This document shows positions 1-54,885 of a DNA stretch of 64,000 nt, piece by piece; within the stretch, counting starts at the first letter, position 1; each line of letters opens with the position of its first letter. The translations under genes were made by a program, and so were the position numbers. The notes under the pieces were generated by a model, which was given only the letters and a program-made list of their open reading frames with translations, did not search any database and was not told the origin of the DNA. This DNA comes from Heloderma charlesbogerti. Taxonomy: Eukaryota > Chordata > Lepidosauria > Squamata > Helodermatidae. The stretch lies in NCBI GenBank assembly GCA_026122225.1, contig JANEZZ010001854.1, forward strand, positions 1 to 64,000, written 5' to 3'.

Positions 1-362
1 AGATGTATGTATTTATGTTGGTGGTAGGGGTGAATGAGGGGTTGATTATAAAATGGGGGGATGTTTGGGTAATGGGGAGGGATGGTGAGTGGAGATATAT
101 TTTTAAGATGATATGGGGATTAAGGGGGGATGATTTGAGGTATAATTTTAAGGTGTAGAGTGAAAGGGGGTAATATTGGTGGTATGGAAAAATGATAAGA
201 TGGAGAAAAGTATGAGGGGATTAGATGTGTTTTTTGGTGTAGGTTGTTGGGGGTGTGTGGTAGGGAGTGAAGTGGGTTTTTTTTTTATTAAATAAGGTTT
301 ATGGGGAGTTGTTGTTGAGATGTTAAATGGGAGTTGATTGGTGGATGTTGAAATAGAAAGTA
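1..362. other. Cytosine-free block, origin unknown
   Basis: These 362 bases contain no C at all; my count is about 98 A, 125 T and 139 G. The first C is at 363 and composition is normal from there on. G is near 38 percent, about what G plus C make up together elsewhere in the window, so the block looks as if C had been merged into G rather than into T. No reading frame, repeat family or gene is recognisable. A plus-strand TTTATT at about 284-289 would read AATAAA on the minus strand, but in this block I do not trust it as a poly(A) signal. A base-calling or assembly artefact is more likely than biology. Confidence 0.8.
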
Positions 363-695
363 CATAGTCCTTTGCACTGCAAACCTGGAGGGAAGCTGAG
401 GAAACATGTTGTGACTCCTGATTTCAGGCGAGTCTGTATGCACCCTTAGGCCTTAATCCTGGGCAGTGGGCACACTCCCTTGGAAGCAGGTTCCACGGAA
501 ATCAACCGGATCTACTTCCAGATAAATGTGTTTAGGGTAGTTATGTCAGATATTTTACAGAGACGGCTCAGCAGTGAACAAGCCCAATACAAGTTTCCTG
601 CAAGACCAATTCTGTGCCATCAGGATAACCCCATCCCAGCCTTGCACCAAGTCAGACCCCTGGCCCACCAAGCTCAGTATTGCTGACAGTGCCCG

Positions 696-828
696 CCTTT
701 CCCAAACCTGGATCCCCAGATGTTGTTGGGACTATCAGCCCTATCATCTCTGACCATTGGCCATACTGGCTGAGGATGATGGGACTTGTAGTCCATCATG
801 ATCAGGGGCTGGCGGTTGGGAAAGGCTG
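696..828. mobile_element. hAT-like palindromic MITE (family B)
   Basis: The left end carries 'cctttcccaaacctgg' and the right end 'ggttgggaaagg', with a palindromic body containing 'gatgatgggacttgtagtcc'. This family recurs across the window with ends of the form cagccttccccaacctgg. It has no coding capacity and is inferred to be mobilised in trans. This copy lies inside an antisense Sauria SINE. Confidence 0.6.
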
Positions 829-861
829 GTTCTCCCTGATCGGCAGTGATTCTTTAAGGGA

Positions 862-991
862 GCGATTCTATGTATGTTCAGACAGAAAAGAATCCTTCAA
901 CTCCCAGCATTCCTCAGGCAGCATGGCTGGCTGGAGAAAGCTGGGAGTTGTAGGACTTTTTTCTGTCTGAGAATGCATAGGATTGCACCTT
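862..991. mobile_element. Palindromic MITE (family A)
   Basis: The ends are complementary: 'tcagacagaaaagaatcc' on the left and 'acttttttctgtctgag' on the right. The inner palindrome is built on 'ctcccagcattcc' and 'gctgggagttgtagg', and the element closes with 'gcataggattgcacctta'. The same structure recurs at 5411, 30205, 36060, 51950, 55478 and 56133. No coding capacity. Confidence 0.65.
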
Positions 992-1001
992 AAGGCAGCC
1001 T

Positions 1002-1127
1002 TCCCCAACCTGGTGCCCTCCGGATGTTTTGAACTACAACTCCCAGCATTCTTGACCATTCACCATGCTGGCTGGGGCTGATGGGAACTGAAGTCCAAAA
1101 CATGGAGGGCACCAGGTTAGGAAAGGC
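1002..1127. mobile_element. hAT-like palindromic MITE (family B)
   Basis: A nearly complete copy: left end 'gccttccccaacctggtg', right end 'caccaggttaggaaaggc', and a palindromic centre 'catgctggctggggctgat'. It abuts the 5' half of an antisense Sauria SINE. No clear 8-bp target duplication is visible for this copy. Confidence 0.7.
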
Positions 1128-2243
1128 TGTGCTTGGGTTTCAGAGAGGTACAGGTATCTTTCCCAGCCCTACCTGGAAATGCTGGGACCTTTTGCATACA
1201 AATCATGGGCTCTACCACTGAGCTATGGCCCTTCTCCATCACTTTGCCATTTTTACAGGTTTGCTGCCAGATTAGGAAACTAGCGTGCTACCAAATTGGC
1301 CCCATAAAGCCAATGTTCCAATGCAAAAAGTACCTTTGTAGAGATGACTAAGCTTATTCAGATCACAGCTGAGTCCAAAAGATGGCAAATGGAGCTTTTC
1401 ATAAGTAACAATGGACCTGGAGCTGAAGCTAAGGAGGCACATAATCCAATTGCTTATGTACTACTCTTTTTTCTATTCTTTTTTAAGGCTACAAAGTAGC
1501 ACAGGGTGTTGTTTCTCGACAAAATGTCTTCTACAAAGTTATCCTTTTGGCCATGTTTACAATAATATATATCTTGGACACTGAGGGCCAAACTCTGCCC
1601 TAATTATATTAGTACAAATCTAGTTATCCTAAAAAGGGAGCACAATTTGGCTCAATACATCCTGGAATAGCACATGAAAAACAAAAGTGTGCACACCTGA
1701 AATACCATTCGGATAACAAGTCCCTGATTCTCCCCCACCCTCCCTTCACAAAGTATACACAGAGAACAATGTGGTGGAATGTTATACAAAGTATCAAAGA
1801 CGAGGGTCTAAACCGTGCATTTCATATGACAAATGCCAGTTTCCATCTTGCTACCTCCAGGAAACAAGATACAGTAAAATATCCATTATCTGACACGAGC
1901 TGTAAAAATAATAACAATCTTGTTATTCACTGTGTGTCCCTTCCCCATGGCAATGCAACTTAGCATGAGCAATGCTTCTTCCTTGACCAGTGTCCAATTC
2001 TGTGTATCCCAGAATTTTTTTGTGCATTAAAATAACAGCAACACCCGATGCTTCGCTCCAAGCAAGAAGAGCTGGTTTCCAAGAAATATCTCATCGCACT
2101 CTTATGAACGTGTCATCTGTGCTGCGTTTCAAAAAAATGCAGCTTTACCTGATTCAGGTTGAACACCGTTTACAAATAAGAAGCAAAGAGCAGGGAAAGA
2201 ATATGAAGCACCATACAGGCAAAAGGCGGGCAAAACTGCAATT

Positions 2244-54885
<52,642 letters not shown>

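What the first reader, a model, noticed from the sequence alone, without database searches (positions are those of the whole stretch)
1..362. 362 consecutive bases without a single cytosine
Directly visible: A, G and T only, then normal sequence from 363. With about 20 percent C expected, chance is roughly 0.8 to the power 362, about 1e-35. G is near 38 percent, T 35 and A 27. Simple C-to-T conversion (bisulfite or deamination) would leave G near 20 percent and push T to about 50; instead G equals the usual G plus C, so the data look like C merged into G. A base-calling, polishing or encoding artefact is my first explanation. A real strand-asymmetric sequence would be remarkable.
Basis: partly seen in the sequence, partly recalled or inferred. 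Interest (0 to 1): 0.75.

Follow-up and report, generated by a model that had tools for sequence, protein, structure and literature searches.

The report
Shifted base calls at contig end
The 362 bases without a C are not a biological curiosity: they are ordinary genomic DNA at the raw end of a contig, in which the sequencing step called nearly every base one step off along a fixed scale (C as A, A as T, T as G), and some other contig ends of the same assembly look alike.

Summary
In detail: window 1-362 has no C (139 G, 125 T, 98 A). Contig C698 is 100% identical to window 355-1500 and continues past the tip with ordinary four-letter DNA. Between that sequence and the tip lies a letter cipher (window strand): true C is called A, A is called T, T is called G, G stays G. 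It fits 318 of 339 aligned bases and is best of 256 mappings (254.5; next 165.5; shuffle maximum 100.9). A second tip, the end of C20, obeys the same cipher against a repeat copy; eight further tips could not be decoded. Of 77 readable contig starts 5 are nearly C-free, of 57 ends 5 nearly G-free, none the reverse by that test. The cipher is a one-rung shift along C-A-T-G, as expected if bases are told apart by signal level and an uncorrected single-pass read was mis-scaled; platform and cause are inferred. Biological interest is low; as a decodable, recurring assembly error it has some.

The parts
1..353 (+). Miscalled contig tip: real sequence written through the cipher A>T, C>A, G>G, T>G; 14% of alignment columns are further mismatches or indels
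   Evidence: Tip 1-351 aligned to C698:9354-8997 under the cipher: 318 matches in 339 aligned pairs, 370 columns
354..362 (+). Normal sequence that lacks C by chance; it made the block look 9 bases longer
   Evidence: Identity to C698 extends left to window 354
355..1500 (+). Stretch 100% identical to contig C698 (minus strand, 7848-8993); the anchor that reveals the true sequence under the tip

Best explanation
Window 1-353 is the raw end of a single, uncorrected long read left at the edge of a contig. In that stretch nearly every base was called one rung off along the fixed order C, A, T, G (window strand: C called A, A called T, T called G; G has no further rung and stays G), so no C can appear. 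Shown: the cipher, its sharp boundary, the ordinary sequence beneath it, a second tip with the same cipher, and C-depleted tips on other contigs. Inferred: that the order is a signal-level (brightness) scale of the instrument, that the level was mis-scaled for part of one read, that the platform is a single-pass PacBio-type one, and that the assembler kept the tip because no other read corrected it there.
For: Contig start. C698 identical to window 355-1500 and ordinary beyond. Best of 256 mappings, 254.5 against 165.5 for the next; null over 168 mappings and 200 shuffles: mean 88.3, maximum 100.9; the same cipher against 208 other stretches of the window (104 stretches, both strands): maximum 95.2. 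Replicated: the end of C20 matches a repeat copy in L029 under the same cipher at 250 bits, next mapping 107, among mappings onto at least three letters. Decoded agreement is 85.9% of alignment columns, indels included, about what I recall for single-pass long reads. Of 19 true bases deleted, 17 are G or T, the merged end of the scale, and isolated G/T are lost too (5 of 35, against 2 of 104 isolated A or C), as expected if weak signals are missed. C698's own start is 1993 G and 7 T in 2000 bases: further rungs along the same scale would give that.
Against: The true sequence is in hand for one tip only; C20 rests on a diverged repeat copy that matches 235 of its bases (tip 4-238). Eight other C-depleted tips (starts of C600, C30, C2900, C160; ends of C1632, C2500, C698, C1600) found no match under any mapping clearly above the others in the loci held; for three of them (C600, C30, C160) a search with inner flank found no fully identical partner contig among the scored candidates, and for the rest the search did not complete or not made. 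Sequence-context statistics rank this cipher first of 256 only for C600; it is 3rd for the block, 7th for the C20 end, and 4th to 32nd for the five others ranked. The order C-A-T-G is its own complement, so the strand of the read cannot be told. Poly-G or poly-C tracts also occur in the opposite orientation (C230 end, C85), so one direction of shift does not explain all of them. No read data, platform name or paper confirms the signal scale.
Confidence: 0.87

Rival explanations
1. Genuine strand-asymmetric, C-free genomic DNA, for instance an allele or insertion present in C1630 and absent from C698.
For: The block is unlike its surroundings, and a DNA search of the own genome returned only itself (that search skips common words).
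Against: Its letters are predicted base by base from the ordinary C698 sequence through one fixed cipher (318 of 339); it begins exactly at a contig tip.
Confidence: 0.01
2. Chemical or enzymatic conversion or letter merging (C to T, C to G, C to A).
Against: Against the true sequence none of the single-base replacements exceeds shuffles; three of four letters changed.
Confidence: 0.01
3. A software or file-level letter recoding (for example a wrong code table) rather than a signal error.
For: The cipher is nearly deterministic for A and C (101 of 104, 85 of 87) with a sharp end at 353/354.
Against: After decoding, 52 of 370 columns still disagree, deletions fall on G and T (17 of 19), and 11 of 78 T stayed T; a recoding of good sequence would decode without loss. 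A noisy single read that was recoded is not excluded.
Confidence: 0.08
4. Cipher real, but caused by something other than signal level on one axis, for example colour-channel misassignment in the detector.
For: Any fixed error of channels would give a cipher; the platform is unknown.
Against: A channel swap need not merge two neighbours nor follow one ordered chain; poly-G with T strays at the C698 start fits an ordered scale.
Confidence: 0.12

Closest known systems
Uncorrected low-quality ends of single-pass long reads kept at contig tips (recalled, general knowledge)
   Same: At a contig tip; 86% agreement with the true sequence after decoding, with indels
   Different: Not random error: nearly every base is replaced by a fixed other base
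Poly-G from two-colour Illumina chemistry, dark signal read as G (recalled)
   Same: Loss of signal is read as a base; this assembly also has poly-G and poly-C tracts
   Different: The block keeps three letters and an ordered one-step shift with indels
Bisulfite or deamination (C to T)
   Same: C is absent from one strand
   Different: True C is called A, and A and T change too
GA/TC-rich HiFi coverage dropout at contig ends (PMC10234299, passages seen)
   Same: Odd composition close to contig ends
   Different: There the composition is real DNA that breaks assembly; here the letters are wrong

Membership tests
Base-calling artefact at a contig tip | Lies at the end of a contig | tested here: met
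   G000:C1630:1 is window 1
Base-calling artefact at a contig tip | True sequence known from elsewhere in the assembly differs | tested here: met
   C698 is identical over window 355-1500 and continues with ordinary sequence
Base-calling artefact at a contig tip | Deterministic relation between true and called letters | tested here: met
   318 of 339 aligned bases, best of 256 mappings; nulls
Base-calling artefact at a contig tip | Recurs on other contig tips of the same assembly | tested here: met
   Tips with at most 5 C (starts) or G (ends) in the outer 100: 5 of 77 starts and 5 of 57 ends, one start being poly-G; the cipher itself is shown on the block and one other tip, eight others undecided
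One-axis signal-level shift in a single-pass read | Instrument separates bases by level in the order C-A-T-G | not testable with these tools
   No read data; listings of paper searches showed nothing on it
One-axis signal-level shift in a single-pass read | Weak end of the scale is lost more often | tested here: met
   17 of 19 deleted true bases are G or T; isolated G/T 5 of 35 deleted, isolated A and C 2 of 104
C-to-T conversion | C replaced by T, other bases kept | tested here: not met
   (outward strand, G to A: below shuffles) and matrix
C merged into G | Match after collapsing C and G | tested here: not met
   (outward strand, G to C: 75.6 against shuffles 83.7)

The most novel reading that the evidence does not exclude
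A systematic and decodable failure of long-read base calling, a one-rung shift along an ordered four-level scale, sits at several per cent of the contig ends of this animal genome assembly, can be recognised by inward C-free tips and can be related to the true sequence by a fixed cipher. The nine paper searches aimed at such artefacts or at the instrument listed no paper whose title or abstract describes it; the papers themselves were mostly not opened.
Probability: 0.6. Interest if true: 0.4.

Novelty: not a real feature. Interest (0 to 1): 0.3.

Why it matters
Such tips look like remarkable three-letter DNA to anyone reading sequence alone, and they may block joins: C1630 and C698 are identical over at least 1146 bases, yet they are separate contigs, and the starts of both are corrupt. 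A simple check (inward C-free or poly-G tips of 60 bases or more) would flag them for trimming before scaffolding, repeat annotation or database searches. About 120,000 overlapping 80-base places of poly-G or poly-C (up to 3 mismatches) in the assembly suggest that the damage is not confined to a few tips.

Tried and rejected
Composition and three-letter Markov models favoured C merged into G and were misleading. Collapsed-alphabet alignment of the block to the rest of the window gave nothing under C>G, C>T or C>A. Collapsed alignment of tips to the other loci then held, before the true sequence was known, gave only short matches close to those of reversed controls. Direct alignment of the block to C698 without a cipher shows no relation. 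A hairpin or turn-back read was tested by aligning to the inner window on both strands under mappings onto three letters; best 92.7 against 254.5. Rfam: no match in the window at the gathering thresholds. Context ranking of the 256 mappings on eight tips and two ordinary controls could not tell the mapping apart except weakly for C600; both controls ranked plain identity first. Decoding of eight other tips by matches to fetched loci failed.

Papers: PMC10234299 and PMC13320880 were seen as passages only; all others only as search listings, and one search listed 10 of 18. sought the genome's own paper and found none.

Full report
What was checked. Window 1-362 holds no C: 139 G, 125 T, 98 A; the next longest C-free run in the window is 65 bases. 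A frame at window 2244-3602 (minus) matches Pfam FAM171A1-2-B_C and a frame at 39447-41561 matches a reverse transcriptase domain; with the genome size this points to an animal, probably a vertebrate (inference). So the block is a contig tip, which changes the question from biology to assembly.

First attempts. But no collapsed-alphabet alignment to the rest of the window exceeded shuffles.

The true sequence. A search of the own genome with window 355-1500 found contig C698:7848-8993, minus strand, 100% identical over 1146 bases. C698 continues beyond that point, under the tip, with ordinary four-letter sequence. Without a letter mapping the tip and this sequence are unrelated. I then scored mappings of true letters onto three letters against three targets in two directions (216 combinations) and all 256 mappings in the direct orientation. 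One stands out: on the window strand A to T, C to A, G to G, T to G, score 254.5; the next, 165.5, shares three of its four assignments. Aligned pairs: A to T 101 of 104, C to A 85 of 87, G to G 67 of 70, T to G 65 of 78 (11 stayed T); deleted true bases: G 7, T 10, A 1, C 1; 12 inserted letters. The alignment covers tip 1-351 and C698 9354-8997 with 318 matches in 370 columns, 86%. Nulls: best of 168 mappings (those onto at least three letters) over 200 shuffled tips, mean 88.3, sd 3.6, maximum 100.9; the same cipher against 208 other stretches of the window, mean 79.0, maximum 95.2. Plain identity begins at window 354.

Not only here. I read contig tips picked by number, plus three chosen ones (both tips of C698, the end of C1630). 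Of 81 starts fetched (C1630's own start not counted) 4 were masked; of the 77 scored, 5 had at most 5 C in the outer 100 bases (C600, C30, C160, C2900, and C698, which is poly-G) and none had at most 5 G. Of 57 ends, 5 had at most 5 G (C1632, C2500, C20, C698, C1600) and none at most 5 C. Without the three chosen tips that is 4 of 76 starts and 4 of 55 ends. Among 2399 interior 100-base tiles the figures are 4 for C and 5 for G. The C600 start is C-free for 809 bases. Reading inward from the tip, these tips lack C: 8 of 8 by this criterion when the chosen tips are left out. Against this, the end of C230 carries a C-free terminal run of 72 bases, mostly G, in the opposite orientation, and C85 has a poly-C tract at 2.5-2.8 kb from its start, also opposite; C235 has a poly-C tract near its end, in the expected orientation. 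The list was cut, so I know the places of only a few such tracts.

Replication of the cipher. With all mappings onto at least three letters, the C20 end (bases 4-238 from the tip) matches a repeat copy in L029 under the same cipher at 85.9% over 248 columns and 250 bits; the next mapping gives 107. In that call matches of other tips under other mappings reach 67.5 bits, which marks the noise level. Confusion counts over a longer local alignment, whose outer part is not supported by the BLAST match: A to T 58 of 63, C to A 90 of 97, G to G 73 of 83, T to G 106 of 132. The other tips tested gave no clear winner: C600, C30, C2900, C160, C1632 and C2500, C698 end and C1600 end. So the cipher is shown on 2 of 10 three-letter tips (the block and nine others); the other eight are alike only in lacking C.

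How it most likely works. The cipher is a step along one order: C to A to T to G, with G staying G. That is what a base caller would do if it told four bases apart by signal level on one axis and the level were mis-scaled by about one rung. Weak signals should then be missed: 17 of 19 deleted bases are G or T, and isolated G or T are deleted in 5 of 35 cases against 2 of 104 for isolated A or C. A larger shift should turn everything into the last letter with rare strays of its neighbour: the C698 start is 1993 G and 7 T in 2000 bases. Because the order is its own complement, a dimmed read running inward and a dimmed read running outward give the same letters; the deletion pattern speaks for dimming, not for a direction. 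From memory, unchecked, PacBio signal-to-noise tags are usually highest for C and lowest for G, which would fit a read running inward from the tip. The 86% agreement with many indels is about what I recall for a single-pass read; the assembler would have kept it uncorrected where nothing else covered the tip.

Verdict. Artefact, with the letter relation shown and the physical cause inferred. The paper searches aimed at this listed no title or abstract that describes such a shift; two papers were opened as passages, the others not.

Noticed in passing
L124, L125 (C698:1-2000): The start of contig C698 is 1993 G and 7 T in 2000 bases. If the overlap with C1630 is collinear, its counterpart in the window (about 7347-9347) is ordinary sequence; C698:2001-7847 was not read.
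   Followed up: partly
whole genome G000: Poly-G of 80 bases (up to 3 mismatches) has 47570 forward and 72498 reverse overlapping places: roughly 120 kb of poly-G or poly-C in the assembly. An orientation test was planned but did not complete.
   Followed up: partly
L146 (end of C230), L130 (C85:2500-2782): Poly-G-rich tip and poly-C tract in the orientation opposite to the C-free tips.
   Followed up: no
L055 and L075 (both tips of C1100): Strong skew without loss of a letter: start G 179 and C 39 of 400, end C 173 and G 47 of 400, the same direction as the corrupted tips.
   Followed up: no
window 355-1500 and C698:7848-8993: Two contigs share a 100% identical stretch but were not joined, perhaps because the starts of both are corrupt.
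   Followed up: partly
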